Source of the DNA: a virus | DNA: 64,000 nt | Direction: 5' to 3' (one strand) | IMG/VR virus record: IMGVR_UViG_3300036859_000186 | Coordinates: 1 to 64,000 of that record | In this document: positions 2,541 to 36,550 of the stretch, piece by piece | Layout of the letters: each line of letters begins with the position of its first letter | Numbering within the stretch: the stretch's first letter is position 1 | Notes under the pieces: generated by a model | Seen by the model: only the letters and a program-made list of their open reading frames with translations | The model's database searches: none | Told to the model about the DNA's origin: nothing | Translations under genes and position numbers: made by a program

Positions 2541-2711
2541 CTAATGCAGCAAACCCCATCGTTGTCTAATGAGATAGTTTTCGCTATGTTTGCCTGTCAA
2601 CATGTATTGTGCGGCTGGGCAGAGTTGTTCGTGCTTGAGCTTTTCTTCTTCGGTTGAAAACGATGCCCCACAGATTGCCTGATGTTCACACTTTAGTGCA
2701 TCTGACCCCAT
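2541..2711 (-). CDS. small zinc-finger-like protein (56 aa)
   Basis: A 56-residue ORF starting at the ATG at 2711, overlapping the polymerase stop by 19 bases (GAGG six bases upstream). It carries C-x5-C and H-x3-C spacings (Cys8, Cys14, His27, Cys31), suggesting a single zinc-binding finger. It fills what otherwise looks like a 150-base gap. Confidence 0.5.
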   Translation of the reverse strand: MGSDALKCEHQAICGASFSTEEEKLKHEQLCPAAQYMLTGKHSENYLIRQRWGLLH

Positions 2712-10558: not shown

Positions 10559-10581
10559 GAATTACTCCTAAAAAGTGTGGT

Positions 10582-10653
10582 AGCGGGTGCCGGAATCGAA
10601 CCGACCATACGTGGCTTATGAGACCACCGTGTCCACCATGTTCACCTACCCGC
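10582..10653 (-). tRNA. tRNA-Met (CAT)
   Basis: Six-pair acceptor stem (GCGGGT/ACCCGC), anticodon loop CTCATAA, five-pair T stem with loop TTCGATT. The seventh acceptor pair is mismatched. CAT may be read as Met (initiator or elongator) or, after lysidine modification, Ile. Confidence 0.8.
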
Positions 10654-10677
10654 AAAAATGGCACGGATGAAAAGAGC

Positions 10678-10737
10678 AGCAGGGATGCGGGTTTGAACTG
10701 CGCGGCTTATGAGGCCGTTCAACCATGATAACCCTAC
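10678..10737 (-). tRNA. tRNA-like remnant with CAT anticodon loop
   Basis: A 60-base segment keeps an acceptor-like stem (GTAGGG/CCCTGC with one wobble) and an anticodon arm CGGC-CTCATAA-GCCG, but the D arm is about seven bases short and the T stem does not pair. A promoter -10 box lies inside its 5' part. Probably a decayed copy of the neighbouring CAT tRNA. Confidence 0.35.
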
Positions 10738-10754
10738 AAAACGACCCGTGTCAA
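10725..10754 (-). promoter_or_regulatory. promoter TTGACA-N18-TATCAT inside the tRNA cluster
   Basis: Minus-strand TTGACA (10754-10749) and TATCAT (10730-10725). It would start a transcript through the remnant tRNA, tRNA-Met and the phosphoesterase operon. Confidence 0.5.
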
Positions 10755-10757
10755 AAA

Positions 10758-10834
10758 TGGTGGAATCGACAGGAATTGAACCTGCAACCCCCTGCGTGCA
10801 AGGCAGGCGCTCTACCATGTTGAGCTATCCCCGC
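10758..10834 (-). tRNA. tRNA-Ala (TGC) with non-pairing acceptor stem
   Basis: D stem GCTC/GAGC, anticodon arm CCTGC-CTTGCAC-GCAGG (TGC), T arm GCAGG-TTCAATT-CCTGT and encoded CCA are all present. However the 5' acceptor GCGGGGA does not pair with the 3' strand CGATTCC (only one Watson-Crick pair plus wobbles). As written it could not form a standard acceptor arm. Confidence 0.6.
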
Positions 10835-10838
10835 AAAT

Positions 10839-10914
10839 TGGCCCAATCGGCACGGATTGAACGTGCGACCTCCGGCTCTTCAGACCAGCGCTCTACCAGC
10901 TGAGCTACGATTGG
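10839..10914 (-). tRNA. tRNA-Phe (GAA)
   Basis: Perfect seven-pair acceptor CCAATCG/CGATTGG, D stem GCTC/GAGC, anticodon loop CTGAAGA, T arm with TTCAATC loop, encoded CCA. Confidence 0.92.
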
Positions 10915-10920
10915 AAAGGC

Positions 10921-11127
10921 AACACGGACAAGTTGGGAATGAGGAAGTGGGAGCCATCACGCTTCCCTGTTTGCGATGATAATCCTCACTCATCGGCCCG
11001 TGCTTAAAGCTTTGCAGTCATCACCACGCGCTACCCATCCCGGAGTCCACTACTATGTAGTAGGTTACTGTTTCGTGCATACCGGGCTTTAAGATCGGGC
11101 CTACAAACCCTCAAGCCTTGTCCGTGT
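10921..11127 (-). ncRNA. highly structured ~205-nt RNA in the tRNA cluster, class unknown
   Basis: No ORF. The ends pair perfectly over 11 bp (10922-10932 with 11117-11127). Nested inside are GGCCCG/CGGGCC (10995-11000 with 11096-11101), CTTAAAGC/GCTTTAAG (11003-11010 with 11086-11093), CCCGG/CCGGG (11039-11043 with 11082-11086), and hairpins at 11050-11063, 10975-10994 and 10943-10966. All stems are mutually compatible, giving a multi-branched fold closed by the terminal helix. It matches no RNA family known to me; tmRNA, RNase P and 6S signatures were not found. Confidence 0.65.
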
Positions 11128-11137
11128 GACTGCAAAT

Positions 11138-11216
11138 TGGGTGCCCCCGGCTAGATTCGAACTAGCACTGAACCGCTTCTGAGGCGGATATCTCTGCCAT
11201 TTGGATTACAGGGGCA
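11138..11216 (-). tRNA. tRNA-Leu (CAG), short variable loop
   Basis: Seven-pair acceptor TGCCCCT/GGGGGCA, anticodon loop CTCAGAA, T arm GCTAG-TTCGAAT-CTAGC, encoded CCA. The variable region is about six bases, unusual because leucine tRNAs normally have a long variable arm, so the charged amino acid is not certain. Confidence 0.8.
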
Positions 11217-11257
11217 TACGTAGGCGTTTGATCGGGTCTTTGTGTGGCATATATAGT

Positions 11258-11332
11258 TGGCTATGGCGGATGGAATCGAACCATCATTACAGGATTCAGA
11301 GTCCTGAGTCCTACCAGTTGAACGACGCCACA
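11258..11332 (-). tRNA. tRNA-Gln (CTG)
   Basis: Acceptor TGTGGCG/CGCCATA, anticodon arm CAGGA-CTCTGAA-TCCTG, T arm GATGG-TTCGATT-CCATC, encoded CCA. Confidence 0.9.
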
Positions 11333-11333
11333 A

Positions 11334-11408
11334 TGGAAGGCGGTGCTGGGATCGAACCAGCCTTAGATGTTTTGCAGACACCCGTCTCAACCGACTGACT
11401 CACTGCCC
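11334..11408 (-). tRNA. tRNA-Cys (GCA)
   Basis: Anticodon arm GGTGT-CTGCAAA-ACATC, T arm GCTGG-TTCGATC-CCAGC, encoded CCA. Acceptor GGGCAGT/ACCGCCT has one A:C mismatch and one G:U. Its 5' end overlaps the last 22 bases of the resolvase gene, so transcription of the two must be continuous. Confidence 0.85.
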
Positions 11409-25715: not shown

Positions 25716-25870
25716 GGCGTTTGGATTCCCAGGCACGCTCCATGATTGGCCGTCTCGAAGTAGAGCCCAAAGGCACCCTCGTAAGAGAAGACTCGAATCA
25801 TGAGCTGACCAGTGGGCCGCTTTTTGAAGCGTCCGATCTTCCAGAGGTCAACGATGAGGGGATTTCTCAT
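25706..25870 (-). CDS. hypothetical protein (54 aa)
   Basis: ATG at 25870 overlaps the stop of the COOH-NH2 ligase gene as ATGA. Beta-rich, unknown. Confidence 0.55.
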   Translation of the reverse strand: MRNPLIVDLWKIGRFKKRPTGQLMIRVFSYEGAFGLYFETANHGACLGIQTPWT

Positions 25871-26907
25871 GATCGAGCCACCGTCTTCTGGAGGAAGTTT
25901 TCCCATCCGCACTCGTGGCCCTCGGGCAGCGTCGTCCAATGCTTCATGGGATCATCAGGGAACCATGCTTCGAGTCCGTCGGTATCGATCTTGGCAACGA
26001 ACTTCTGGAACTGCTTCAGTTCGTGACCAGCCGATAGCCCTCGGTCCGTATTTCCTCCGACGTGGGCTTCGAGGAATTGGGAGAACTTCTCGAAGTTTGC
26101 CTTGGCAAGCCCCACGTCATTGAGGTTGATGGCCCGTCGAACCCTTGGGAGCGGCACCATTCCACGGAGAGTCTTCTCCGCTTCCCAGCGCTTCTCGCCC
26201 ATGATGTCGCTCACCAAACGCCCCAACCCCATCACGAAGGACATGAGCGGGTAAGCTCGAAGCCAGGTGTTGGAGAGCGTTCGGTATTCGACGCCGAAGG
26301 GTTGCTCACGGAACTCACCAGCCCGTCCGTAGACGCGCCGACGAGTTCGCATGAGAGGGTGTCGGTCAAACAGCACCGCTGTGTTGCCGATCACGATGTC
26401 ACAGAGCGCAACGAAGCGCTCATAGCCATCCTCCTCGTGAAGGAGTTCGTTGATGTTGCCGAAGTGCAGGTGCCCACCAGCGGACCGCGTTCGATACGTG
26501 AACGGGTTCACACGGACACCAACCTGCCGCTTGTAAATGCTCTTGCTTGGATTGCACCCAAGCATCTTGACCCGATCAGGCATGGCGTCCATGTCCCGTT
26601 TCGGGATGCGAATCACCGGAGTCCAACAGACCGTGAGGTCGGTGTCTTCCAGTTTGTGCTGAAGGCGACGCATGATGTCGGCCATCATATTGCCAATCTC
26701 AGCACGACAGAACGCTGCCTGTGGGTTGATCTCCAGCTGGATGCCGTCTCGGACGATCTTGCCGAGCCCCTTGAGTTTCATCCCTGCTTCTGGAATCAGC
26801 TCGGACGATGGAACGATGTGACCGTTCCGCGCCAAGAACAACTCTGGGTCCGAACCGAACGATGGATCGGAGTTGTTCTCCACCAATTTCGCATACTGCA
26901 AAGCCAC
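25867..26907 (-). CDS. phage COOH-NH2 ligase type 2 (amidoligase superfamily)
   Basis: 346 residues starting at GTG 26907 (GGGGAGGAAG upstream). GSDPELFL at 18-25, DGIQLEINP at 54-62, AGGHLHFG near 145 and GVEYRTLS near 220 match the phiEco32-like COOH-NH2 ligase family (PF14395). The acidic and histidine residues correspond to the metal/ATP site. With the ATP-grasp, GAT-II and PF12224 genes it completes a predicted amide-bond-forming system. Confidence 0.87.
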   Translation of the reverse strand: MALQYAKLVENNSDPSFGSDPELFLARNGHIVPSSELIPEAGMKLKGLGKIVRDGIQLEINPQAAFCRAEIGNMMADIMRRLQHKLEDTDLTVCWTPVIRIPKRDMDAMPDRVKMLGCNPSKSIYKRQVGVRVNPFTYRTRSAGGHLHFGNINELLHEEDGYERFVALCDIVIGNTAVLFDRHPLMRTRRRVYGRAGEFREQPFGVEYRTLSNTWLRAYPLMSFVMGLGRLVSDIMGEKRWEAEKTLRGMVPLPRVRRAINLNDVGLAKANFEKFSQFLEAHVGGNTDRGLSAGHELKQFQKFVAKIDTDGLEAWFPDDPMKHWTTLPEGHECGWENFLQKTVARS

Positions 26908-27112
26908 GACTTCCTCCCCGCCGCGAAAATCGCGGCACCAACGCTGCCTTTACTCAGCACTGGCTTGTGTGAAATGTGTGGACAAGAGATTGCGAGGGAC
27001 CATTTTTATCGCCAAAGATAACGGTCCCAATTCGGCCCACAACGGTTTCTGACACACAAAGGGATTTCAACGGCCCAGTCTAAGGCCCCTTGTAGCTGAC
27101 TCCGCCGACTGA

Positions 27113-27502
27113 CTAGTAACGTTCTGTCGTCTTGCTGACTTTCCCTTCCTTCGTCCACTGCGCGATCAGCTTGTTCAGCTGAGTGTAGTCCGGGTTCCAC
27201 ACCACCACGGTTGAGCTGTGGGGAGGATGCACCGGATTCTTGACGAACTCAGAGCGAATGACCGCTCCGAGCTTGTGCTCGGTGACGAACGCCATGAAGG
27301 CGTCCGCATAGAACTTGTGTTCCCCGAGCCACTTCTTGTAGTTCGTGCCCCAGTCCGTCACGTCGGCGAGACACAAGATGATGCACGGCGACCGCATACC
27401 CTTCTTGAGGGCGGCAGCCAGATACGTCTCAAGACTGTCGGCATGGCACAGCCCGCCGATCTCCTGGACGCCACAGTTCTCGACGTAACCCGTTTGTCCC
27501 AT
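27113..27502 (-). CDS. hypothetical protein, paralogue of 19358-19711
   Basis: 129 residues from ATG 27502 (GAGGAG upstream), whose N-terminus then lines up with the paralogue. An ATG at 27541 touching the Rsr stop is the alternative. Located between the Rsr gene and the amidoligase genes. Confidence 0.65.
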   Translation of the reverse strand: MGQTGYVENCGVQEIGGLCHADSLETYLAAALKKGMRSPCIILCLADVTDWGTNYKKWLGEHKFYADAFMAFVTEHKLGAVIRSEFVKNPVHPPHSSTVVVWNPDYTQLNKLIAQWTKEGKVSKTTERY

Positions 27503-27540
27503 GGTCAGCGCTCTCCTCGGTGAAAGTGATGGCTCATACA

Positions 27541-29145
27541 TTAGACTCTCTCCGCGATGAAGTCGCTGACGATCTGGGGAGCGGCAGAATCGAATCCAGC
27601 CACGTCCAGCGTGCGACGGTCGTCCGGGTCGGCGATGGTGAAGTTCGTCGAGGTCATACCCATGACCACTTCGCAAGCGGCCGGGACGCCCATCTTCTGG
27701 CGATACTGACGGAGGGCTTGCGACGGATGGATGGCACCGGCGTAGGTCTCGTTGTCGGTGATGATGACGAAGCCATCGACCTCAACGCGGTTTTCCATGG
27801 CCCACAGGACGGGCTGAGCGCAGTCGGTGCGGCCGAAGTTGTTGCGCTGTGCAGCTCGGCACACCTCATCGAGGCGCATCTTGGGGGTGATGCCGAGGTC
27901 CACGAAGCGGTCGCAGAACCCGAACGTGTAGTAGTCCTTCTCGACCTTGGCGGTTGCCATCGCCATAGCAGCAGCACCCTCACAGGCACTCAACGGCATG
28001 TTGGCAATTGCGGCTGTCCGCATCGAGCCAGACACGTCGATGCCGAAGACGATCCGTTTGCCGGTCGGCTTCAGAGACTTGAATGCCAGGTAGAACGCAT
28101 CATCGAGAGCGTCCACAACAGCAGGCACTGGCTTCCACGCACCATCACCCCTGACGCCGTGACCAGACGCGTAGGTCTTGAGGGCGATGAGGATCTCGAT
28201 GGGGTGGACGCGTGCCTTGTTCAGCCATTCCTTGTCACCAAGGACAGCGACAACCTTGCGCGAGGCGTCCGAGAGGGGCGCGAGAAGGCCACACTTGGAG
28301 AGGTTGCCCAGGTTGCGGATCATCGCAGTTGCAGGCATCTTCTCCAAAAGAGCAGCCCACACGTCGGGGTCCTTCAGGAATTCGGTGGGGACCATCTCTC
28401 GCGTGAGGCCGTGATTCTGGATGAGTCGGCAGAGGTCACGGGCTGACTCGGCTGACTTGGCAGCCTCAAAGCCTACGATGACCTGGGGAAGCGTGGGTCC
28501 GTCTGCCTTGTGTCCCTCGATGCCATCAACGCACCATTTGAAGATAGCGTTCCGAGCTTCATCTGAAGTCTTCGGGTGCGCCAATCTGAGGACATCCGCA
28601 TTGGACCAGCCGTCCCTCGACTGATACTTGACGACGTGTTGGGCGAGCTTTTCCGTCGGAAGGTCAAGATACCAGTTCGCCAGGGAACTCCGAAGGCCGC
28701 GCCCCAACCCACGAAATGTCGTGACGAAGGCCATGAAATGAAAGAGGTGCGTGGGGATTCGGCAGACCTTCGGGAGAGCAGCCAGTGCCAGCTTTCGAGT
28801 GGCAGGATCTGCAGCAGACGCTGCAAGAGCCAAGGCGAAAATCGCAGGATCGTTCTTCGGTGCTCGTCCTTCATCGGATACCTCCACGATGGTGCGGACC
28901 ACTCTGGCACCATCCGCTTCGATACACCGGATGGTTCGTGCCGCATTCTCCCTCGTCAGTTTCTGAGGAGACGCGTAGTAGCTCCCACCCTCACTGCCGA
29001 GGATCAGGAACCGCAGGAACGCTGCGAAGTCGTCAAGGGCATAGACGTAGCCCCCGGCGCTGTTCTGAACCTGAGCCTCACCCAGGAGTGGTGAAGTCTG
29101 AGGCTGGGCAACACGCGGCCCAATCGAGCTGAACGGTCTCTTCAT
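27541..29145 (-). CDS. rsr: Ro60/Rsr-like TROVE-domain RNA-binding protein
   Basis: 534 residues. The N-terminal ~355 residues match the TROVE domain (SPLLGEAQVQNSAGGYVYAL..., then LGSEGGSYY), a HEAT-repeat ring that binds Y RNAs and misfolded RNA. Residues 366-534 are a von Willebrand A domain with an intact MIDAS: Asp370-x-Ser372-x-Ser374, Thr440 and Asp464. Bacterial Rsr works with a Y RNA and PNPase in RNA decay. A Y-RNA-like element lies at 36181-36322 on the same strand. Confidence 0.92.
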   Translation of the reverse strand: MKRPFSSIGPRVAQPQTSPLLGEAQVQNSAGGYVYALDDFAAFLRFLILGSEGGSYYASPQKLTRENAARTIRCIEADGARVVRTIVEVSDEGRAPKNDPAIFALALAASAADPATRKLALAALPKVCRIPTHLFHFMAFVTTFRGLGRGLRSSLANWYLDLPTEKLAQHVVKYQSRDGWSNADVLRLAHPKTSDEARNAIFKWCVDGIEGHKADGPTLPQVIVGFEAAKSAESARDLCRLIQNHGLTREMVPTEFLKDPDVWAALLEKMPATAMIRNLGNLSKCGLLAPLSDASRKVVAVLGDKEWLNKARVHPIEILIALKTYASGHGVRGDGAWKPVPAVVDALDDAFYLAFKSLKPTGKRIVFGIDVSGSMRTAAIANMPLSACEGAAAMAMATAKVEKDYYTFGFCDRFVDLGITPKMRLDEVCRAAQRNNFGRTDCAQPVLWAMENRVEVDGFVIITDNETYAGAIHPSQALRQYRQKMGVPAACEVVMGMTSTNFTIADPDDRRTLDVAGFDSAAPQIVSDFIAERV

Positions 29146-29324
29146 TGCATTGTCTCCCCTCTGTTGTGTTGAACGAGTTTCTGAGCTTGCGTTGCCGCCG
29201 CAATCATGGCCTGATCAGACAGCTCGCGCCACACCCTTGCCCATTGCGACAAGGGAGCCCGAACGTCCTTGGGCATGCCAGCGATGGCATCTTCAACCGC
29301 TCTCTTCAACTCTTGATCGGTCAC
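29142..29324 (-). CDS. hypothetical helical protein (60 aa)
   Basis: Short alanine-rich helical product whose stop overlaps the Rsr start. Co-translated with Rsr; unknown. Confidence 0.6.
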   Translation of the reverse strand: MTDQELKRAVEDAIAGMPKDVRAPLSQWARVWRELSDQAMIAAATQAQKLVQHNRGETMQ

Positions 29325-29333
29325 GGCCCCCTC

Positions 29334-29753
29334 CTAGTCGGTCATGTCCTGGTCTACATCGAGCATCCCAGGCGCATCGCCCAGGATGAGAGTGTTTTGA
29401 TTCGTTCGCACGTCCCCATCGTTGAAGCGGATGAAGAAGTGGTCAGGATTGATTGTGCACCTGTAGTAAGTGAGTTTCGAGCCCTCAATAAGTGGAGGGT
29501 CCACCTTGATTACGTGGTGGCACGTAGGGCATGACAACTTGGCTAGACAGTTTTGCACATGACGGTGCCACGCATCGCCAAAGCGCGTTATCCCCATGGG
29601 CTGCCCAGGAACAATCGTGGGCGCATTGGCTATTGGAGTTATCCTCTGGAGGAAGTCTCTGGCCGGTTCCCGGTATGGAGGGAGGGCCAGCTGAGTAGGG
29701 CGGCGTTCCACCCTCGGCTTCCTCTGTTCCTCCTTGAAGTCGTCCATCTTCAT
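29334..29753 (-). CDS. hypothetical zinc-ribbon protein
   Basis: 139 residues with CPTCH and a later YYRC, a possible zinc ribbon, preceded by a proline/arginine-rich region. Unknown. Confidence 0.62.
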   Translation of the reverse strand: MKMDDFKEEQRKPRVERRPTQLALPPYREPARDFLQRITPIANAPTIVPGQPMGITRFGDAWHRHVQNCLAKLSCPTCHHVIKVDPPLIEGSKLTYYRCTINPDHFFIRFNDGDVRTNQNTLILGDAPGMLDVDQDMTD

Positions 29754-29755
29754 TT

Positions 29756-29959
29756 CTACCGCCTCTCCTCATCGACACGCAGTAGCTCTTCCTGTCGCCG
29801 TCGCCGTCTTGCGATGGGCACTAGGTATTGTCGCTCCAGTGACTCCAACGCGTTCCTTAGTTCCAGGGACGCATCTATCGCATCTTCGCGGCCTCCATTT
29901 TCTTGGGCAAGAGCATATTTGACGAAAGCAACAAGGAGTCGTTCTTGGCGCTGGTTCAT
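29756..29959 (-). CDS. small helical protein, Arg-rich C-terminus
   Basis: 67 residues from ATG 29959 with AAAGGAGAG upstream; helical with an RRRRR stretch. Unknown. Confidence 0.6.
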   Translation of the reverse strand: MNQRQERLLVAFVKYALAQENGGREDAIDASLELRNALESLERQYLVPIARRRRRQEELLRVDEERR

Positions 29960-29961
29960 GG

Positions 29962-30141
29962 TTAGCTCTCCTTTTGGCATGCGCCAACATCCCCATGAGC
30001 TGGTGTCAGGTCGGCCCCACAGTAGGGGCACAGGCCAGCCTCAACACATACTCGGATGTAGCGCTCCAGCTCACGGCGCTGACTTAGACGATCCTCTGCC
30101 TTCAGGAGGATGCGAGTATCGAGTATGGGGCTCTTCAACAT
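29962..30141 (-). CDS. small CPYC zinc-finger protein (59 aa)
   Basis: ATG at 30141 (GAGG six bases upstream). Helical first half, then C-x5-CPYCG...H...C, a single zinc site. Ends just upstream of the next gene's SD. Confidence 0.6.
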   Translation of the reverse strand: MLKSPILDTRILLKAEDRLSQRRELERYIRVCVEAGLCPYCGADLTPAHGDVGACQKES

Positions 30142-30191
30142 GAGCTACCTCAAAAGTGCGTCGGATAAATTTCGTAGGCAGCGGTTTTATC

Positions 30192-30428
30192 TTAGAAGGA
30201 TAACGCTACCAGAGCGACCCGACACGTCAAATTTGGTGGAGGCTTGATAGGCATATGGACAGAGCGGAGCGGTGATGAGGAGACACAATGCTCGTCAATC
30301 GTTGCTGCGTAATCTGCCGCCAACCCACAACAGCCCCCATAAATAGTGGAGCCAAGGACAAGTGTTTGCAGAGGGGTATTCCTGTGCGCTGCCTTTCGGC
30401 CCGCTTCTAGGTGCCAGATAACCCTCAT
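30192..30428 (-). CDS. possible small protein, weak evidence
   Basis: 78-residue frame with no obvious SD. Composition is plausible but unremarkable. It occupies the only part of 30142-30450 without another gene; otherwise that stretch shows nothing clear. Confidence 0.25.
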   Translation of the reverse strand: MRVIWHLEAGRKAAHRNTPLQTLVLGSTIYGGCCGLAADYAATIDEHCVSSSPLRSVHMPIKPPPNLTCRVALVALSF

Positions 30429-30450
30429 GCGTCGGCCCTAGGCTCCAAGC

Positions 30451-30591
30451 TTACTTCCTTGATTCTGGATACAGCACGTCGAGAACTTTCTTTTGCTCAC
30501 CCTTCGCAAGGTCGGGGAGCATGGTCAGTAGGAGCCTTTCTAGCTCCTTCACGCGTGCCTCCAGAACTTGAACGTGCTTGAAATAGTCCAT
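30451..30591 (-). CDS. small coiled-coil protein (46 aa)
   Basis: ATG at 30591 with AGGGA upstream, directly after the GNAT stop. Leu/Glu/Lys heptads (VLEARVKELERLLL). Unknown. Confidence 0.55.
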   Translation of the reverse strand: MDYFKHVQVLEARVKELERLLLTMLPDLAKGEQKKVLDVLYPESRK

Positions 30592-30593
30592 GG

Positions 30594-31037
30594 CTATTCA
30601 TCCCTTATGGTCTTGTGCCAGAAGGCAACGGTGTTCTTGGTCCGCTTGTTGAAAAATTCGAACCCCTTCCACCAGCCAAACTTTTCGAGGATGTGAGCCT
30701 CAGCTGGGTTGCCAGTCATGTTGACCGTAGCAGCGAGGCTCGAATATCCGAACTCTCTGGCGATGGCTTCCTTGAAGGGCATCAGTGCTTGAGCAATACC
30801 CTGCTTTTGATGCTTCGTTTCGACCCATGTCTTGGTGCTCACGAGCACACCGCAACAGTTGACCTGCTCGACGAGGGTAAAGCCGCATGCCCGTTCGTTG
30901 TTCAGGAAGCCCGTGAACTCCAACAGGAACGGACTCTTGCGGATGCGGATCTGCACGTCGCCCCACTCGTAGAACTCCTCACTGAGGGTTCTAATAGATG
31001 CAACGGCCTTTGGCACGTCACGAATTGAGAATGGCAT
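30594..31037 (-). CDS. GNAT-like acyltransferase
   Basis: 147 residues; QKQGIAQALMPFKE is the acetyl-CoA-binding motif A (Q/R-x2-G-x-G/A variant) and AATVNMTGNPAEAHILEKFGW the motif B region with the usual N-x3-A...LEK.GF. Probably acetylates an amine; GNATs occur with amidoligase clusters in phages, but this one lies 4 kb from the ligases. Confidence 0.75.
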   Translation of the reverse strand: MPFSIRDVPKAVASIRTLSEEFYEWGDVQIRIRKSPFLLEFTGFLNNERACGFTLVEQVNCCGVLVSTKTWVETKHQKQGIAQALMPFKEAIAREFGYSSLAATVNMTGNPAEAHILEKFGWWKGFEFFNKRTKNTVAFWHKTIRDE

Positions 31038-31162
31038 TAGAGGGTCCTCCGCAATGCTTCGCAGACCATTTCGATCTTGGTCTGGATGTCTTCCAGATCA
31101 GCGATCTGATCTAGGGTGGCGATGCGTTCTTTCAGATCGAGGGTAAATGGAGCGTGGCGCAT
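31037..31162 (-). CDS. small helical protein (41 aa)
   Basis: From ATG 31162, downstream of tRNA-Trp. A longer frame from 31297 would translate through the tRNA and is rejected. No SD seen. Confidence 0.42.
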   Translation of the reverse strand: MRHAPFTLDLKERIATLDQIADLEDIQTKIEMVCEALRRTL

Positions 31163-31176
31163 GGCACCATTGGGGG

Positions 31177-31251
31177 TGGCGGGACGGCGTGGACTCGAAC
31201 CACGAACCTTTCGTTTTGGAGACGAACACTCTGCCATTGAGCTACCGACCC
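31177..31251 (-). tRNA. tRNA-Trp (CCA)
   Basis: Anticodon arm TTCGT-CTCCAAA-ACGAA, T arm CGTGG-TTCGAGT-CCACG, encoded CCA. Acceptor GGGTCGG/CCGTCCC has one T:T mismatch at the fourth pair. Confidence 0.88.
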
Positions 31252-31280
31252 CTTTCGCAAAATGCGCGAAGTAAAATTCC

Positions 31281-31496
31281 CTAGATTTTGCCACCAAGAC
31301 GAACGATTTCGAGTTCGACTTCCTCAGCGGCTTTAGTTATGGCCTTTGCTACACACTGATGGCCATCTTCATCTGCTTTCGTGGCAAGGCGAGCCAAGAC
31401 ATCCCAATAGCCACTATCAGTCACGATCTTATCGAGTTCCACTTTGTGTTGGTGTCGCATGATTCTCTCGACAGTCAGGGCTATTTCTACAAGCAC
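31281..31496 (-). CDS. hypothetical helical protein
   Basis: About 71 residues from GTG 31496; coding character continues a few codons upstream, so the start is unsure. Overlaps the lipoprotein-like gene by 68 bases. Unknown. Confidence 0.5.
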   Translation of the reverse strand: MLVEIALTVERIMRHQHKVELDKIVTDSGYWDVLARLATKADEDGHQCVAKAITKAAEEVELEIVRLGGKI

Positions 31497-31650
31497 AATT
31501 CTTTGCAGATTGTGTGCCTCTGAGAATCCTCTGACACTCCGCGACGATGGCGTCTTCGGTTGACAACGAGTAGTGCTCCATCTCACAGCCTCCAGTGTAG
31601 ACCACGTAGAAGACCAGAGCGATGAAGACTACCCGATGCCAGTGAATCAT
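31429..31650 (-). CDS. small lipoprotein-like membrane protein
   Basis: 73 residues. Short basic start, hydrophobic core (VVFIALVFYVVY) and TGGC resembling a lipobox. The tail after residue 50 lies in the overlap. Possible Rz1-like or inner-membrane protein. Confidence 0.5.
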   Translation of the reverse strand: MIHWHRVVFIALVFYVVYTGGCEMEHYSLSTEDAIVAECQRILRGTQSAKNCACRNSPDCRENHATPTQSGTR

Positions 31651-31737
31651 CTACTTGACCGATCCCAGCTGAATGAGCGGCGCCGTCGAGGTGAGAAGTG
31701 ACGCGATGAACAATCCTGCCCAGAACTTCGATCTCAT
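31651..31737 (-). CDS. 28-aa hydrophobic peptide
   Basis: ATG 31737 with GGAGG eight bases upstream; basic start and a single hydrophobic stretch ending in an Ala-Pro turn, like a signal peptide. Its stop abuts the next ATG. Confidence 0.45.
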   Translation of the reverse strand: MRSKFWAGLFIASLLTSTAPLIQLGSVK

Positions 31738-31934
31738 GACATGAGCCTCCAGAGGTAACGAAACAAGCGGACGAACCAGAAGCCTGGCGCGGCCACAGCG
31801 AGTATGACACCCGCCAACACAGCGGCATCATTGGGTCGGCTGATCAGGTAGAGCGCTTGGGTGAGCGCCAGTGATGTGAGCAGCACGAGAAGGACTTCAC
31901 GAAGGACCCGAAGGACGGACCAGTATGTCGGCAT
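31734..31934 (-). CDS. small two-TM membrane protein
   Basis: 66 residues from ATG 31934 (GGAG upstream). Two hydrophobic segments, at about 12-30 and 37-55, with basic ends. Could be holin-like; not provable. Confidence 0.6.
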   Translation of the reverse strand: MPTYWSVLRVLREVLLVLLTSLALTQALYLISRPNDAAVLAGVILAVAAPGFWFVRLFRYLWRLMS

Positions 31935-31950
31935 AGTGTCTCCAAACACG

Positions 31951-32033
31951 AAAAAGGGAGGTGACATGGATGAGTGGTTGTCCAGGGAACATTTGGAAGG
32001 TAACCCTAGAACGCCGACCCATGTCATCTCCCC
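31951..32033 (-). terminator. long-loop terminator-like inverted repeat
   Basis: On the minus strand a 13-base arm (32031-32019) pairs with 31969-31957 at 12 of 13 positions and is followed directly by TTTTT (31955-31951). The loop is about 50 bases. Lies just after the HD-domain gene. Confidence 0.5.
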
Positions 32034-32054
32034 AGCGGGGCACAACGGCAACTT

Positions 32055-32873
32055 CTAACGACTTGGCATGAGAATTGGATGACCCTCGTCACCAACCTCC
32101 TTGTAAAGCGCTTCTTTCAGCTGATACATAGCTCGTGCCCACAGCGCTACTGCGTCCGGTGAGGCCGCTTGCAGCACCATTGGGAATTCCCGAGCTGTCT
32201 TCTTGAAGTAGTTCTCTGCCCAACGACGGGCATCCTTCGGCTTGATTCGACAGCCCTCAGGCTTCGTGAGCATTCGAGTCATGTCGTTCAGGTTGTCGGC
32301 CCGGTCTAGAGTCTTAAGTGAGGCCGCGTCCTGATCGTTCGATATCTTCGAGTAGTAGACCACCTTCATGGCCGCTTGAAGGTCTTCGGGCGTCTCGTCC
32401 TTCCAATCCTTCGTGAGGAGCATGACAAGATCGACCGTTCGGTCTGGGAACTTTAACGCAATGAGGTCGTGCTGCATGATATAAGTGTCTTCCACCACAT
32501 CGTGGAGCAATGCTGCTGCCTGTGCTTCCTCATTGAGGCCGATGTCACGAGCCATCTCGAACACCCGAATGGGATGCACGATGTATGGGTCATCGAAGGC
32601 TTTACGCTTCTGTGAGATGTGTGCAGCCGTCGCACACTCCAGCGCTACATTGATGAGCGTATCGCCTTCAGGTTCAGCCACAGGAATCTCCGTATAGGGT
32701 GGTCGCGTCCTAATCAAGTGGTGCTTGCAGACAGGGCAGTCGCCCCAGCTGTAAGTCTCTGAATGGACGGGGTGAGCGATGGGGATTAGGCACCACTCAC
32801 ACCACAATTCATCTGCCATAGCACTAGTTCCTTCGAGGAACAAAAGCTTTTCGTCGAGTGAGCGCCAAGGCAT
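32055..32873 (-). CDS. zinc-ribbon plus HD-domain phosphohydrolase ((p)ppGpp hydrolase-like)
   Basis: 272 residues. N-terminal CEWC...CPVC zinc ribbon (about 23-50), then a RelA/SpoT-type HD domain: HISQKRKAFDDPYIVHP, LLHDVVEDT and TLDRADNLNDM, providing the His, His-Asp and Asp metal ligands. MESH1-like proteins with this core hydrolyse (p)ppGpp or related nucleotides. The start in a TGATG overlap is used; ATG 32819 is the alternative. Confidence 0.8.
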   Translation of the reverse strand: MPWRSLDEKLLFLEGTSAMADELWCEWCLIPIAHPVHSETYSWGDCPVCKHHLIRTRPPYTEIPVAEPEGDTLINVALECATAAHISQKRKAFDDPYIVHPIRVFEMARDIGLNEEAQAAALLHDVVEDTYIMQHDLIALKFPDRTVDLVMLLTKDWKDETPEDLQAAMKVVYYSKISNDQDAASLKTLDRADNLNDMTRMLTKPEGCRIKPKDARRWAENYFKKTAREFPMVLQAASPDAVALWARAMYQLKEALYKEVGDEGHPILMPSR

Positions 32874-33313
32874 CAGTGCTTGATGTCGTCGCCGCTGATG
32901 TCGATGTCCACCGCTGGCAACACCTCAGCCACATCGCTCTCGACAACCTCACCATCGATCACTGGCTCGGGCTTCTGTCCAGCCTTCGGATCTTTCGGAC
33001 GAGGCCGATTGAAGTAGGTCGTCCAGATGACCTCACGGTCTTCCTTCGAGAACGTCTCGTCACCAGTTGCGGCAAGAGCGAAGGTGATGGCCGATTTACG
33101 GCCCTTTTCCTTGTTGAAGACATCCTGACGAGAGCACACCGCAGTCGCAGAGGTGATGAGGTTCGCCGTGACGAGCTTGCCGTCCTTCTGAACGGTCTCC
33201 CAGATGTCACAGATCGTCGTTCGACGCCCCGGTCGCTTTCCGCGTGGTTTCTCTTGCTGGCGTTCGAATGCCAGAGCAATCGTTCTGTTCTTTGGCAATG
33301 TGACGTGTATCAC
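32873..33313 (-). CDS. hypothetical protein
   Basis: 146 residues with GTG start; basic middle and acidic C-terminal third (DIDISGDDIKH). Its stop overlaps the HD gene start. Unknown. Confidence 0.65.
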   Translation of the reverse strand: MIHVTLPKNRTIALAFERQQEKPRGKRPGRRTTICDIWETVQKDGKLVTANLITSATAVCSRQDVFNKEKGRKSAITFALAATGDETFSKEDREVIWTTYFNRPRPKDPKAGQKPEPVIDGEVVESDVAEVLPAVDIDISGDDIKH

Positions 33314-33361
33314 GGCTGACTCCTCCTGATAGGCGCATTTAACGCCGCGCCCTTAGCGGCT

Positions 33362-33440
33362 TGGTGGGTCGTGGTGGATTCGAACCTGCCCAGATCCCTC
33401 TCCCGTGGACATCTATCGTTACCCCACTACTGTTGCCGAG
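33362..33440 (-). tRNA. tRNA-like remnant (3' half recognisable)
   Basis: GGTTCGAATCC T-loop core, 3' acceptor strand ACGACCC, discriminator A and CCA are present. No matching 5' acceptor, no normal anticodon loop, and the T stem has two mismatches. A GCCGC/GCGGC hairpin follows at 33344-33360. Probably a decayed tRNA. Confidence 0.35.
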
Positions 33441-33494
33441 GAGGCCCCAGCAGTGACGATAGCCCAGCCGTCCCAGCTGGCTGACGACCCAAAC

Positions 33495-33833
33495 TTACTC
33501 GCCCTTATGACATAGGGTTGAGATGTATCGGCGTTCCTTCTGATGGTTGTGGGCTGGCCCTTCGCACCATGGACACCACATCCATGCGTTGACGGAGTTC
33601 TGCGACATGGGGCGTAGGACGTGCCAGATGTGACCACAGACAACCCACTTTAGGTATTGCAATGGTAGATACCAATGCAGATACAGAGCGAGTCGCTCTT
33701 GCCACGTCTTCTGACGCTTCCCAATGCAGCCACACTTAGCACAGTGGGGCACAGGGGCGTCGTGGCATTCGTCGGTGACGAGTGGGCCGCCACACTCGCA
33801 GGTTCCGATTCTATCGGTCACGGTCCTTGTCAC
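33495..33833 (-). CDS. Cys-rich zinc-binding protein
   Basis: 112 residues with CECGG, CAKCGC, and CPWC, likely two zinc sites flanking a Trp-rich helix. Unknown. Confidence 0.62.
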   Translation of the reverse strand: MTRTVTDRIGTCECGGPLVTDECHDAPVPHCAKCGCIGKRQKTWQERLALYLHWYLPLQYLKWVVCGHIWHVLRPMSQNSVNAWMWCPWCEGPAHNHQKERRYISTLCHKGE

Positions 33834-34005
33834 CTTTCCAACCCCGCTTGAGCTGTTCGAGGTTGTATTTTGCCATGATGTCGTTCAATGCTCGGATGGT
33901 CATGAAAACTGCCAACTCGTTGGGTTCACCATAGTGGAGCTGGTCCCACAGCTTCTGAGACTCATCCTTGAGCAGTTCATGGGCGGGATGCTTCAACAGT
34001 GGCAT
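33811..34005 (-). CDS. small helical protein
   Basis: 64 residues from ATG 34005, AAGGAG upstream. Helical, basic C-terminus. Unknown. Confidence 0.6.
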   Translation of the reverse strand: MPLLKHPAHELLKDESQKLWDQLHYGEPNELAVFMTIRALNDIMAKYNLEQLKRGWKGDKDRDR

Positions 34006-34120
34006 TGCTTCTCTCCTTATCCCAACGCCAGACACCGTCCTCGTAGATCATGACGGTGATGCAGTCGAACTTGCACTTGTGGATGGTGCCGTTGGCCGGG
34101 GGCTCGTTCTGTGTGCTCAT
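33977..34120 (-). CDS. hypothetical protein (47 aa)
   Basis: From ATG 34120; contains CKFDC. The upstream in-frame start at 34201 has poorer context. Unknown. Confidence 0.5.
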   Translation of the reverse strand: MSTQNEPPANGTIHKCKFDCITVMIYEDGVWRWDKERSNATVEASRP

Positions 34121-34194
34121 AAAGTCCCCAAGGGACGAGAGGCAACACCTGAAAAGCCCACCTTGAGCAATGCCGTAAGGCACGCGGCTACCCA

Positions 34195-34443
34195 TTACCA
34201 TTCCTCATCGTTGTCGGGAAAGGCTCGGGTCTCCTTGGCATAGCGCTTGCACTTGGTGCAGAAAGCAGGCCAACAGTCCCCAGTCATGCCAAGTAACACA
34301 CGATGGCTCTCACCGTCGTCGCAGGTGCCGCTTTCCAACTCTTCGCTGGTGGTCAGGAGAGCGGGATCAGGAGGCTTCTCATCGTTGTCACAGGCTCCGG
34401 CCTCTATGACTTCGAGGGCCTCACGCATGTCATCGAGGTTCAT
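34195..34443 (-). CDS. acidic Cys-containing protein
   Basis: 82 residues from the ATG overlapping the preceding stop (TGATG). Highly acidic with CTKC near the end. Unknown. Confidence 0.6.
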   Translation of the reverse strand: MNLDDMREALEVIEAGACDNDEKPPDPALLTTSEELESGTCDDGESHRVLLGMTGDCWPAFCTKCKRYAKETRAFPDNDEEW

Positions 34444-34631
34444 CACCACATCACCTTTTTACAGCGCCTACATTGTGCGAACGCCTCAGAGAGGAGCACC
34501 GGCCCATGAAAGAGCGGTGGATACCACACCGGATCGTGTCCCCACACATTGCATTGGGTCATGAGGGGCATCAGCTCCCAATAGAGCAAGAGCGCAATGA
34601 ATGTGAGGACAAAGATACCGAGCAGGTCCAT
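34443..34631 (-). CDS. membrane-anchored small protein with CRRC
   Basis: 62 residues: N-terminal TM segment (LLGIFVLTFIALLLYW) and C-terminal CRRCKK. Unknown. Confidence 0.6.
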   Translation of the reverse strand: MDLLGIFVLTFIALLLYWELMPLMTQCNVWGHDPVWYPPLFHGPVLLSEAFAQCRRCKKVMW

Positions 34632-34789
34632 TAGCCCTTCCGTCGATTCTGGCGGTTGATGGCACGCTTCGACAAGATGCGGCCACGGTTGTGGCGCTTC
34701 GATGCCTGACGAGCAGCCCAGCCCACACCAGCCTTCTCAGTGCCAATGCGGTTCAGTTCCCGCTTGATTCGTTTCTCTCTTTTCCGCAT
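34631..34789 (-). CDS. small highly basic protein (52 aa)
   Basis: From ATG 34789; Arg/Lys make up about 40% of residues. Nucleic-acid binding likely by charge only. Confidence 0.55.
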   Translation of the reverse strand: MRKREKRIKRELNRIGTEKAGVGWAARQASKRHNRGRILSKRAINRQNRRKG

Positions 34790-34790
34790 G

Positions 34791-35006
34791 TCAGCCCCGG
34801 TCTCGCTGGTGAAGGTCGTCGGTGTATTCGACATCGTCGATCTTGAAGTTCTCCAGCACCTTCGTGAGGGCGATCTTGGCATCGACCAGTTGGGCTTGCG
34901 TCTGTTGAGCGGCCTTAATCTGGTCGTCGATCACGATGATTTGACGGTCGAGGGCCAACTGAGCATCACGAAGCTTGAGAAGGGCACTGTTGTTCATCGT
35001 AAACAC
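34791..35006 (-). CDS. coiled-coil protein
   Basis: 71 residues from GTG 35006, eight bases after AGGAGGAG. Long heptad helix (ALLKLRDAQLALDRQIIVID). Unknown. Confidence 0.6.
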   Translation of the reverse strand: MFTMNNSALLKLRDAQLALDRQIIVIDDQIKAAQQTQAQLVDAKIALTKVLENFKIDDVEYTDDLHQRDRG

Positions 35007-35095
35007 GGTAGTCTCCTCCTTGAGAAAAAGGCAGCACTGATCGTCATTGGGGCACAACCTCACCCCATCCCTACAAATGAGGGTGCAGCGCAGCG

Positions 35096-35344
35096 TCATG
35101 AGAGGTTGAACCTCACCTTGCCGAAGTCCACGACACGGCCGAAGATGCGGCGTCTAGCGAGGGAGCCCATGCTCTCTTCCATAGCTTCGGCACAGTCGCG
35201 CAGCATGATGTATTCCTCAACGGAGACGGGCACAGATATTTGGAGGCCACGGCCGCCGTTGGCCATCTTTTGACGAACGCTCTTAACGTGGCGCTTAGTC
35301 GAGGGTAGGCCACCCAAACGCCGACGAAAGACTTCTAAGAGCAT
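35096..35344 (-). CDS. hypothetical basic protein
   Basis: 82 residues from ATG 35344. A longer frame to 35674 exists but its upstream half reads as the shadow of 35295-35582 (Ser/Thr repeats). Basic N-terminus, SVPVSVEEY helix. Unknown. Confidence 0.55.
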   Translation of the reverse strand: MLLEVFRRRLGGLPSTKRHVKSVRQKMANGGRGLQISVPVSVEEYIMLRDCAEAMEESMGSLARRRIFGRVVDFGKVRFNLS

Positions 35345-35582
35345 GTCCGGTCTCTGCCTCAGAAAGCCTGTCAAAATCTTCCTCTCCGTCTTCGAGCCTG
35401 AGAGCCTGTTGACGATGGTTGAGAGGCTCTGACCCTTCATCAGATCCTTCGACCTCAAGAGCCCTGAGCTTTCCAAGCTCGCGTTCGAGTTCGAAGTAGT
35501 CGTCGGGGCTGAGTTTGTCTTCTTCGCCATGCCTGAGCACGTCCTCGATGTCTGTGATACGCTGAGTGTATCGGCTAGGCAC
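35295..35582 (-). CDS. acidic helical protein
   Basis: 95 residues from GTG 35582 overlapping the upstream stop. Glu/Asp-rich. Overlaps 35096-35344 by 50 bases. Unknown. Confidence 0.55.
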   Translation of the reverse strand: MPSRYTQRITDIEDVLRHGEEDKLSPDDYFELERELGKLRALEVEGSDEGSEPLNHRQQALRLEDGEEDFDRLSEAETGHALRSLSSAFGWPTLD

Positions 35583-35862
35583 GGTCGCGTTCCTTGAGCC
35601 GGGGGGCACGAACCTTGTGGATGCGTTCGACAAGGAGCTTGTGGTTGACCTGGGGCTGAAGCTCCTCGCCGCATCGATCGACGAGGATGGCTAGTCCTTC
35701 GGGGCTGACCCTCAACTCCTTGACAATCTCGGTGCCCTTACTGACGAGGGTTTCGCCGTTGGGCAGCAGGTTTCTGTAGGTGACGGGTCGCACAATGGCG
35801 ATCACCTTTCGCATAGGGACGCCGAGCTTTGTCACTTCTTGTGTTACTTCGCAACGGAACAT
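35575..35862 (-). CDS. hypothetical protein
   Basis: 95 residues from ATG 35862 (AGGAG six bases upstream). Beta-rich first half, helical basic C-terminus. The 300 bases upstream (35870-36180) hold no gene I can support, only a start-less protein-like frame. Confidence 0.6.
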   Translation of the reverse strand: MFRCEVTQEVTKLGVPMRKVIAIVRPVTYRNLLPNGETLVSKGTEIVKELRVSPEGLAILVDRCGEELQPQVNHKLLVERIHKVRAPRLKERDRA

Positions 35863-36180
35863 CACGAACTCCTTGTAGCTTCATCTCATGAAGGTGTTGC
35901 TGCTCACTATCATGCAAGAGATATGCACGATTGTGAGGATTTAAGTCTCCTTGCAGTATGAGGGCTGCAGCGTTCTTGTCTCGCACGACCTTTGGAAAGT
36001 GTGACCACATGAGAACCTTATTGGAGTGCTGGGGGTTCAGACTCTCAAACTTTAGGGACCTATCCGCCTACGAACGACTTCCACCATTGTCGAGCGAACC
36101 CAACACACGTGTCCATCGAGTGACAGCTATAATAATGGAATCCCACTCAATTACCATGGTCAGTGAGCTTCGATTCCCAA

Positions 36181-36322
36181 GGCAAATCCTCTCTACTCCA
36201 GCTCCCCTTGTTATCGCAAATGCTTTACCGCTAAGCTACCAGCCCCATTGCTGGGGCCGGGGTGGGTTCGAACCACCGACCTTTTGCGAACTTGGGCACG
36301 CTTCGTTCAAGAATGATTGCCC
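36181..36322 (-). ncRNA. Y-RNA (YrlA-like) with permuted tRNA-like domain
   Basis: Read on the minus strand, a T arm (GGTGG-TTCGAAC-CCACC) comes first. Then an 8-bp acceptor-like stem CCGGCCCC/GGGGCTGG is closed by the six-base loop AGCAAT. A D arm follows (GCTT-AGCGGTA-AAGC, with the GG pair). The anticodon-side strands TTTGC/GCAAA do not close but continue into an imperfect long stem ending GGCAATC/GATTTGCC. So the molecule is a circularly permuted tRNA mimic on a terminal stem, the architecture described for bacterial YrlA RNAs that partner Rsr. No ORF covers it. Confidence 0.82.
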
Positions 36323-36334
36323 GTCCCCCCAACC

Positions 36335-36550
36335 TTAGCCGTGAATGAGCCATCCAATGACGAGAGATGCCTCTTCAGGGTTCATTTTCCCTTGGGCTCG
36401 CAACTCTTCGGCGAATTCTTTCTTGATCTCCGACGGTACCTCATCGTAGCGGTGGTCTTTGCCAGTGAGGTTGTCGCGGAGCCACGGCTCGTCAAAGAAA
36501 GCACCCTCATCGCTCAAAATTGAGAAGCGACGATCCTGTTTCACGCTCAT
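36335..36550 (-). CDS. hypothetical protein
   Basis: 71 residues from an ATGA-overlap start with AAGGAG upstream. Helical, acidic. Ends 13 bases before the Y-RNA-like element, so the RNA may be processed from this transcript. Confidence 0.6.
   Translation of the reverse strand: MSVKQDRRFSILSDEGAFFDEPWLRDNLTGKDHRYDEVPSEIKKEFAEELRAQGKMNPEEASLVIGWLIHG

What the first reader, a model, noticed from the sequence alone, without database searches (positions are those of the whole stretch)
27541..36322. Phage-encoded Ro60 (Rsr) with its own Y RNA
The 534-residue product at 27541-29145 is a full TROVE-plus-vWA protein with intact MIDAS residues. At 36181-36322 on the same strand an RNA folds as T arm, acceptor-like stem closed by a hexaloop, then D arm, with the anticodon side opening into a long terminal stem. 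That permuted tRNA mimic is the described architecture of bacterial YrlA RNAs, the partners of Rsr. All tRNA-like stems were checked by hand (5, 8, 4 and 5 bp). A phage carrying both protein and RNA could redirect host PNPase-type RNA decay or tRNA-processing enzymes, or protect its own tRNAs.
Basis: partly seen in the sequence, partly recalled or inferred. Interest (0 to 1): 0.85.

Follow-up and report, generated by a model that had tools for sequence, protein, structure and literature searches.

The report
Phage Ro60 with seven Y-like RNAs

Summary
27541-29145 encodes a 534-aa Ro60/Rsr: TROVE + Ro60-vWA, MIDAS intact, Y-RNA-contact residues kept, predicted ring matches solved Ro60 at TM 0.93. 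At 36181-36322 a permuted tRNA-like core (T arm, 9-bp acceptor hairpin, D arm) is real: a model built only from relatives scores it 58.6 bits, E 1.5e-16, against 29 bits for the best tandem tRNAs in the window. Rfam YrlA hits it below its gathering score (34.8 vs 69).

In relatives such cores sit on a stem with a conserved Rsr-docking signature (GYCG...GTTAYC // YTTRYCC), within 2 kb of rsr. This RNA lacks the signature and lies 7.1 kb away. A second independent model finds six other RNAs with the signature on the rsr strand: four flanking rsr (26971-32027) and two weaker ones between tRNA genes (10656-10754, 10917-11006). In the phage's own family, Y RNAs occur only in records that have rsr.

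Phage Rsr and phage Y RNAs are known (about 350 phage records; reported from mycobacteriophages). This is a rich new member of a known kind. Function (Y-RNA-directed RNA decay or tRNA decoys) is inferred, not shown.

The parts
27541..29145 (-). rsr: 534-aa Ro60 orthologue, TROVE (HEAT-repeat ring) + Ro60-type vWA with intact MIDAS
   Evidence: Pfam; D. radiodurans Rsr 2nvo E 7.6e-134; AlphaFold model pLDDT 92.3, TM 0.93 to Ro60-RNA structures 9nfa/1yvp; K173/R177/H190 = human K170/R174/H187
36181..36322 (-). tRNA-mimic (YrlA-type) RNA: permuted T arm 36277-36261, acceptor hairpin 36260-36239, D arm 36236-36222, on a long imperfect terminal stem without the Rsr-docking signature
   Evidence: relatives-only model R2 58.6 bits, E 1.5e-16 at 36216-36284; Rfam YrlA 34.8 bits, E 8.4e-6, gathering 69; fold z -3.36; no docking-stem match; lies between the stop at 36335 and the next minus ORF at 36010
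30154..30227 (-). canonical Y RNA (GGGTCG...GTTATC//TTTATCC; hairpin TTATC-CTTCTAA-GATAA), about 1.0 kb upstream of rsr
   Evidence: relatives-only model R1 52.2 bits, E 1.7e-9; fold z -3.27
30347..30445 (-). canonical Y RNA (GGGCCG...GGTTATC//CTTGTCC) with a longer distal part, about 1.2 kb upstream of rsr
   Evidence: R1 27.6 bits, E 4.2e-4; fold z -2.40
31959..32027 (-). canonical Y RNA (GGGTCG...GGTTACC//CTCATCC), 2.8 kb upstream of rsr
   Evidence: R1 41.2 bits, E 4.3e-7; sub-threshold Rfam match to nematode Y-RNA homologue RF01656, 26.9 bits, E 0.023; fold z -2.13
26971..27045 (-). canonical Y RNA (GGGCCG...CGTTATC//CTTGTCC), about 0.5 kb downstream of rsr
   Evidence: R1 41.6 bits, E 3.5e-7; loop GTTATCTTTGGCGATAAAAATG recurs exactly in one other IMG/VR contig, which also has rsr; fold z -1.93
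10917..11006 (-). candidate Y RNA between tRNA-Phe and tRNA-Leu genes
   Evidence: R1 27.7 bits, E 3.8e-4; 9 bp lower and 9 bp upper stem, z -2.41
10656..10754 (-). candidate Y RNA between two tRNA genes; distal hairpin GGC-CTCATAA-GCC has the same 7-nt loop as the neighbouring tRNA-Met
   Evidence: R1 22.7 bits, E 4.9e-3; weakest of the set, z -0.88; sequence
31177..31251 (-). tRNA-Trp (cca) lying between the Y RNA genes upstream of rsr
   Evidence: ARAGORN, Rfam tRNA
10578..11408 (-). array of six tRNA genes in which two Y RNA candidates are interleaved
   Evidence: ARAGORN, Rfam tRNA, sequence

Best explanation
The phage carries a complete Ro60/Rsr ribonucleoprotein system: one Rsr ring protein, several canonical Y RNAs (four confident, two likely), and one separate tRNA-mimic RNA of the YrlA type. 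Shown by sequence: the identity and predicted fold of Rsr; the docking-stem signature in six RNAs; the tRNA-like core of the seventh; strand and genomic association with rsr in relatives. Inferred from work on Deinococcus and Salmonella: the Y RNAs dock by their basal stem on the outer face of the Rsr ring, control what single-stranded RNA end may enter it, and use their differing distal parts as adaptors to other enzymes (PNPase in Deinococcus). Having several Y RNAs would let one ring be directed to several partners or substrates. The tRNA mimic most likely occupies tRNA-recognising enzymes or PNPase; whether Rsr carries it is open, because its docking signature is missing. The likely benefit in infection is clearance or quality control of structured and damaged RNA, tied to the phage's own tRNA supply.
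For: Rsr. tRNA-like core: R2 E 1.5e-16; arms covary in relatives (98.3% paired, covariation 0.785 vs 0.191 shuffled and at most 0.201 slid). Canonical Y RNAs: R1, made only from relatives, finds six, all on the rsr strand. R1 specificity: 106 hits in 73 Rsr-bearing viral loci, all on the rsr strand. Lower stem covaries (7 of 9 pairs with changes on both sides); the Y of GYCG couples with the R of TTRYCC 28 C-G and 12 T-A against 1 exception, p 1.6e-9, and all six window RNAs obey it (sequences). Co-occurrence: of 16 related phage records only G012 has TROVE and only G012 has R1 hits, four of them. A loop pattern searched without reference to rsr hit a further rsr phage with five Y RNAs.
Against: No expression, binding or infection data. 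The two RNAs in the tRNA array are weak (22.7 and 27.7 bits; z -0.88 and -2.41). The 41 RNAs behind R1 were picked by a motif scanner, so the motif's invariance in that alignment is by construction; strand bias, co-occurrence and the Y/R coupling are not. The tRNA mimic has no docking signature and is far from rsr. No clear promoter or terminator was seen. The record is a 76-kb fragment, and the family records without rsr are also fragments. E-values of these models are rough.
Confidence: 0.78

Rival explanations
1. The RNA at 36181-36322 is a Y RNA whose Rsr-docking stem has diverged, closer to the Salmonella type, so that Rsr still binds it and it is an ordinary YrlA.
For: Rfam YrlA aligns over its full length 1-114 with a two-part stem; the 3' strand AUAACAAG resembles the consensus aAaAcUuG; strong core.
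Against: The 5' strand matches the consensus AUGCU poorly; score 34 bits below gathering; no YCGR or GTTAY motif; R1 null; 7.1 kb from rsr.
Confidence: 0.45
2. The RNA at 36181-36322 works without Rsr, as a free tRNA decoy for tRNA-modifying, tRNA-processing or tRNA-cleaving enzymes.
For: T-loop and D-loop tertiary residues kept while the docking signature is lost; detached from rsr. YrlA is known to be a substrate of tRNA-modifying enzymes (PMC8394870), and a role as competitive inhibitor of an anticodon nuclease was suggested for it (PMC7790460).
Against: The same core without rsr was not found in the 15 related records (R2 hits there look like tandem tRNAs); a single example.
Confidence: 0.3
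3. The core is a remnant of two tandem tRNA genes, or a permuted tRNA gene.
For: Tandem tRNAs in arrays score up to 42.6 bits with R2.
Against: No tRNA on either side; one perfect 9-bp hairpin with a GNRA loop joins the two acceptor strands; the anticodon stem opens into a long stem with no anticodon loop; 58.6 bits.
Confidence: 0.04
4. The six canonical Y RNAs are chance hairpins or mRNA attenuators, not Rsr partners.
For: Some have modest fold z-scores (-0.88 to -2.4).
Against: E 1e-9 to 5e-3 with a model blind to the window; all on the rsr strand, in gaps between plausible genes; signature coupling kept in all six; absent from rsr-less relatives.
Confidence: 0.06

Closest known systems
Deinococcus radiodurans Rsr / Y RNA / PNPase (RYPER)
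   Same: Rsr closest solved relative by sequence (2nvo, E 7.6e-134); Y RNA with basal stem and distal module
   Different: phage-borne; six canonical Y RNAs; no phage PNPase was noticed among the genes scanned
YrlA (Rfam RF02553; Salmonella rsr-yrlBA-rtcBA operon)
   Same: permuted T arm - acceptor hairpin - D arm on a long stem
   Different: 34.8 bits against a gathering score of 69; Rsr-docking signature not found; 7.1 kb from rsr; no RtcB or RtcA in the genes scanned around rsr
'Ro-like RNA binding protein' genes of mycobacterio-, Gordonia, Streptomyces and Microbacterium phages, with Y RNAs
   Same: mostly 35-48% identical Rsr; YrlA-type RNAs beside rsr, often among tRNA genes
   Different: there the tRNA-like core and the docking signature are on one RNA, mostly 0.1-0.3 kb upstream of rsr
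Phage G012 (IMGVR_UViG_3300036852_000182)
   Same: same phage family (major head protein 81%), Rsr 57% identical, four canonical Y RNAs among tRNA genes
   Different: no tRNA-like Y RNA seen in its 31.7-kb fragment
Vertebrate Y RNAs and nematode stem-bulge RNAs
   Same: basal stem with bulged C and the UUAUC loop motif (PMC4726728, PMC4030889); 31963-32026 matches RF01656 weakly
   Different: different upper stems; bacterial RNAs were described as not homologous to the vertebrate clades (PMC4726728)
Ro60 of Thermus phage phiLo (PDB 9l5y)
   Same: phage TROVE protein with solved structure
   Different: 20% identity, TM 0.58, a divergent branch

Membership tests
Ro60/Rsr | TROVE domain | tested here: met
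   PF05731 E 4.2e-40
Ro60/Rsr | Ro60-type vWA with MIDAS DxSxS...T...D | tested here: met
   PF25045 E 1.6e-60; D370, S372, S374, T440, D464
Ro60/Rsr | ring fold of Ro60 | tested here: met
   pLDDT 92.3; TM 0.93, rmsd 1.8 to 9nfa_A
Ro60/Rsr | RNA-contact residues (human K170, R174, H187) | tested here: met
   K173, R177, H190; H187 essential per PMC4030889; the other two from memory
Ro60/Rsr | binds Y RNA | not testable with these tools
   needs protein and RNA
YrlA (36181-36322) | permuted tRNA-like domain with T, acceptor and D arms | tested here: met
   R2 58.6 bits, E 1.5e-16
YrlA (36181-36322) | Rfam RF02553 gathering score | tested here: not met
   34.8 vs 69 bits; none of 15 other Rsr phages reach it either
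YrlA (36181-36322) | basal stem with the conserved Rsr-docking signature | tested here: not met
   R1 nothing above 4.5 bits, filters off; motifs absent. A long stem does fold
YrlA (36181-36322) | encoded beside rsr | tested here: not met
   7,084 nt away; relatives at most 1,952 nt; same strand is met
Canonical Y RNA (six loci) | docking stem GYCG...GTTAY//TTRYCC | tested here: met
   R1 52.2, 41.6, 41.2, 27.7, 27.6, 22.7 bits
Canonical Y RNA (six loci) | paired coupling C-G or T-A inside the signature | tested here: met
   six of six (sequences); 40 of 41 relatives
Canonical Y RNA (six loci) | same strand as and near rsr | tested here: met
   all minus strand; four within 2.9 kb; two are about 16-17 kb downstream in the tRNA array
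Canonical Y RNA (six loci) | expressed small RNA bound to Rsr | not testable with these tools
   no RNA data
tRNA gene or tandem tRNA remnant (36181-36322) | tRNA call or neighbouring tRNA genes | tested here: not met
   ARAGORN, Rfam

The most novel reading that the evidence does not exclude
Phage Y RNAs as a family present interchangeable tRNA parts (acceptor/T/D core, or anticodon-loop hairpins) on an Rsr platform and act as decoys or sensors against host anticodon nucleases. In relatives, 27 of 66 tRNA-like Y RNAs carry a 7-nt anticodon-like loop between the docking motif and the T arm, giving a four-armed permuted tRNA (0.75 expected, shuffle maximum 4). In this window the RNA at 10656-10754 displays CTCATAA, the loop of the neighbouring tRNA-Met, and 30154-30227 displays CTTCTAA. 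Here the tRNA core has moved onto an RNA of its own.
Probability: 0.15. Interest if true: 0.8.

Novelty: new member of a known kind. Interest (0 to 1): 0.5.

Why it matters
Why phages keep Ro60 is unknown. A compact phage with a complete Rsr, several Y RNAs and close relatives lacking both gives a clean natural comparison. If the Y RNA set lets one ring serve several partners, it would show in a genetically simple system how Y RNAs act as adaptors. The signature GYCG...GTTAYC//TTRYCC with its C-G/T-A coupling is a practical key to Y RNAs that Rfam misses in phages and bacteria, and the shared UUAUC element bears on whether bacterial and animal Y RNAs are homologous.

Tried and rejected
Rfam at gathering thresholds: only tRNAs. 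RF02553 at low thresholds: rings in 9 of 14 control genomes, probably on tRNA clusters, so not used as proof. Single-protein search of IMG/VR: nothing; an alignment was needed. Tandem-tRNA reading of 36181-36322: rejected. Permuted tRNA gene: rejected, no anticodon loop closes. An upstream docking motif missed by regular expressions: sought with R1, filters off, not found. Promoter and terminator scans: uninformative. Strong R2 hits in G009, G012 and G015: tRNA arrays, not Y RNAs.
Full report
What was claimed and what is there. The window is part of a 76,344-bp IMG/VR virus record. The two features of the finding are real and lie on the minus strand. The 534-aa product of 27541-29145 is a full Ro60/Rsr: vWA_Ro60 1.6e-60 and TROVE 4.2e-40, Deinococcus Rsr 2nvo as best solved relative by sequence (E 7.6e-134), human and Xenopus Ro60 close behind. 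MIDAS residues are intact, and K173, R177 and H190 correspond to human K170, R174 and H187; H187 is reported as essential for Y RNA contact (PMC4030889). An AlphaFold model from 32 sequences (pLDDT 92.3) superposes on Ro60-RNA complexes with TM 0.93. Terminase, portal, major head protein and DNA polymerase show that it is a phage.

The tRNA-like RNA. Rfam YrlA aligns over its whole length at 34.8 bits, E 8.4e-6 in the 701-base search and 2.1e-7 in the genome search, below the gathering score of 69. None of 15 other Rsr phages reaches that score either, so the Rfam threshold is not a fair test here, while sub-threshold RF02553 hits also ring in control genomes. I therefore built model R2 from 45 tRNA-like cores of relatives, without any window sequence. 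Its arms are supported by covariation (98.3% of cells paired; score 0.785 against 0.191 shuffled). It scores the window RNA 58.6 bits, E 1.5e-16; the next window hits, tRNA genes, reach 29.3 bits. Tandem tRNAs in related phages reach 42.6 bits. The tRNA mimic is real.

Relatives. 350 phage records, mainly Mycobacterium and Streptomyces phages, hold an Rsr relative; 403 IMG/VR contigs matched an alignment of phage Rsr proteins, 80 kept, and 75 bacterial loci were fetched. A strict scanner for permuted T-acceptor-D cores gave 74 hits on the rsr strand and none on the other over 2.0 Mb, and none in 6 Mb of shuffled sequence; a few of the 74 were tRNA clusters and were set aside. In 24 viral loci all such cores lie within 1,952 nt of rsr. 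Upstream of the cores two motifs recur, GYCGR and GTTAYC, with YTTRYCC or CACGYCC downstream: GTTA[TC] in 61 of 72 (8.6 expected), both 5' motifs in 50 of 72 (2.3 expected), the 3' motif in 47 of 72 (7.7 expected). I read this as the Rsr-docking basal stem. That Rsr binds the lower stem of bacterial Y RNAs is published (PMC4726728; PMC8394870); that these motifs are the contact is my inference.

Forty-one RNAs with this stem from relatives gave model R1; seven of its nine lower-stem pairs show changes on both sides. The Y of GYCG pairs with the R of TTRYCC: 28 C-G, 12 T-A, one exception, p 1.6e-9. R1 finds six RNAs in the window, all on the minus strand: 30154-30227 (1.7e-9), 26971-27045 (3.5e-7), 31959-32027 (4.3e-7), 10917-11006 (3.8e-4), 30347-30445 (4.2e-4), 10656-10754 (4.9e-3). 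All six keep the coupling, three with C-G and three with T-A (sequences). Four flank rsr; two sit between genes of the tRNA array at 10.6-11.4 kb. In 73 viral loci R1 gives 106 hits, every one on the rsr strand. The 41 RNAs were chosen with a motif scanner, so motif invariance in that alignment is not evidence; strand bias, coupling and co-occurrence are.

Family test. Sixteen records that share this phage's terminase or major head protein were searched whole. Only one, G012, has a TROVE gene, and only that one has R1 hits, four of them. The others, including records of 63-74 kb, have neither; they are fragments, so this is supportive rather than final. A loop pattern from these Y RNAs, searched in IMG/VR without reference to rsr, hit five contigs; three have rsr, one of them not seen before, with five R1 hits.

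The odd point. Tested as a YrlA it meets the tRNA-like-domain feature and fails the docking signature and the adjacency. It works like a YrlA tRNA mimic; whether it is an Rsr partner is open.

Mechanism. Inferred from Deinococcus and Salmonella: Y RNAs dock on the outer face of the ring, gate access and tether partners such as PNPase (PMC8394870, PMC6340977, PMC4726728). Several Y RNAs would give several adaptors for one ring. The tRNA-like core is a known substrate of tRNA-modifying enzymes (PMC8394870), and a role as competitive inhibitor of an anticodon nuclease was suggested for YrlA in Salmonella (PMC7790460). In relatives 27 of 66 tRNA-like Y RNAs also carry a 7-nt anticodon-like loop just 5' of the T arm (0.75 expected), so many are four-armed permuted tRNAs; I found no description of this in the held papers, but the key papers (RNA 2014, Annu Rev Microbiol 2020) are not held. 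In the window, 10656-10754 shows the loop CTCATAA, identical to that of the adjacent tRNA-Met. This makes an anti-nuclease decoy role worth testing, at low probability.

Known or new. Phage Ro genes are widely annotated; Y RNAs were reported from mycobacteriophages (Chen et al. 2014 as cited in PMC12282133) and several phages (Sim and Wolin 2018 as cited in PMC7765460); jumbo phages with TROVE proteins are described (PMC7824862); a phage Ro60 structure exists (9l5y). The case is a new, unusually rich member of a known kind.

Noticed in passing
window 10656-10754 (-) and 10917-11006 (-): Two Y RNA candidates are interleaved with tRNA genes of the phage tRNA array; the first displays the tRNA-Met anticodon loop CTCATAA in its distal hairpin.
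   Followed up: partly
L008 5643-5780, L010 14180-14310, L017 4684-4821, L040 11399-11541 and others: tRNA-like Y RNAs of phages and bacteria often carry a fourth, anticodon-like arm (stem plus 7-nt loop such as CTGCTAA, CTGTTAA, CTCATAA) between GTTAYC and the T arm: 27 of 66 against 0.75 expected.
   Followed up: partly
window 31959-32027 (-): Sub-threshold match to the nematode stem-bulge RNA family RF01656 (26.9 bits, E 0.023); the UUAUC loop motif of animal Y RNAs recurs in phage and bacterial Y RNAs.
   Followed up: partly
L007 11187-11265: The annotated tRNA-Thr(tgt) of prophage prophiGD43A-5 overlaps a tRNA-like Y RNA core and is probably a misannotated Y RNA; the locus has three such cores in a row upstream of rsr.
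   Followed up: partly
L011 7717-7779: The annotated tRNA-Leu(gag) of Gordonia phage BlueNGold overlaps a YrlA-type core (RF02553 52 bits, R2 52.7 bits) and is probably a Y RNA inside the tRNA array.
   Followed up: no
window 11008-11131 (-): Perfect 8-bp arms TGCAGTCA/TGACTGCA enclose about 110 nt between a Y RNA candidate and tRNA-Leu; possibly a further structured RNA.
   Followed up: no
window 33365-33390 (-): Isolated T-arm-like stretch followed by an acceptor-like end and CCA (GCAGGTTCGAATCCACCACGACCCACCA) without a tRNA call.
   Followed up: no
window 2693-5488 (-): Family A DNA polymerase fused to an N-terminal uracil-DNA-glycosylase-superfamily domain.
   Followed up: no
window 25867-26907 (-): phiEco32-like COOH-NH2 ligase-type protein encoded downstream of rsr.
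   Followed up: no
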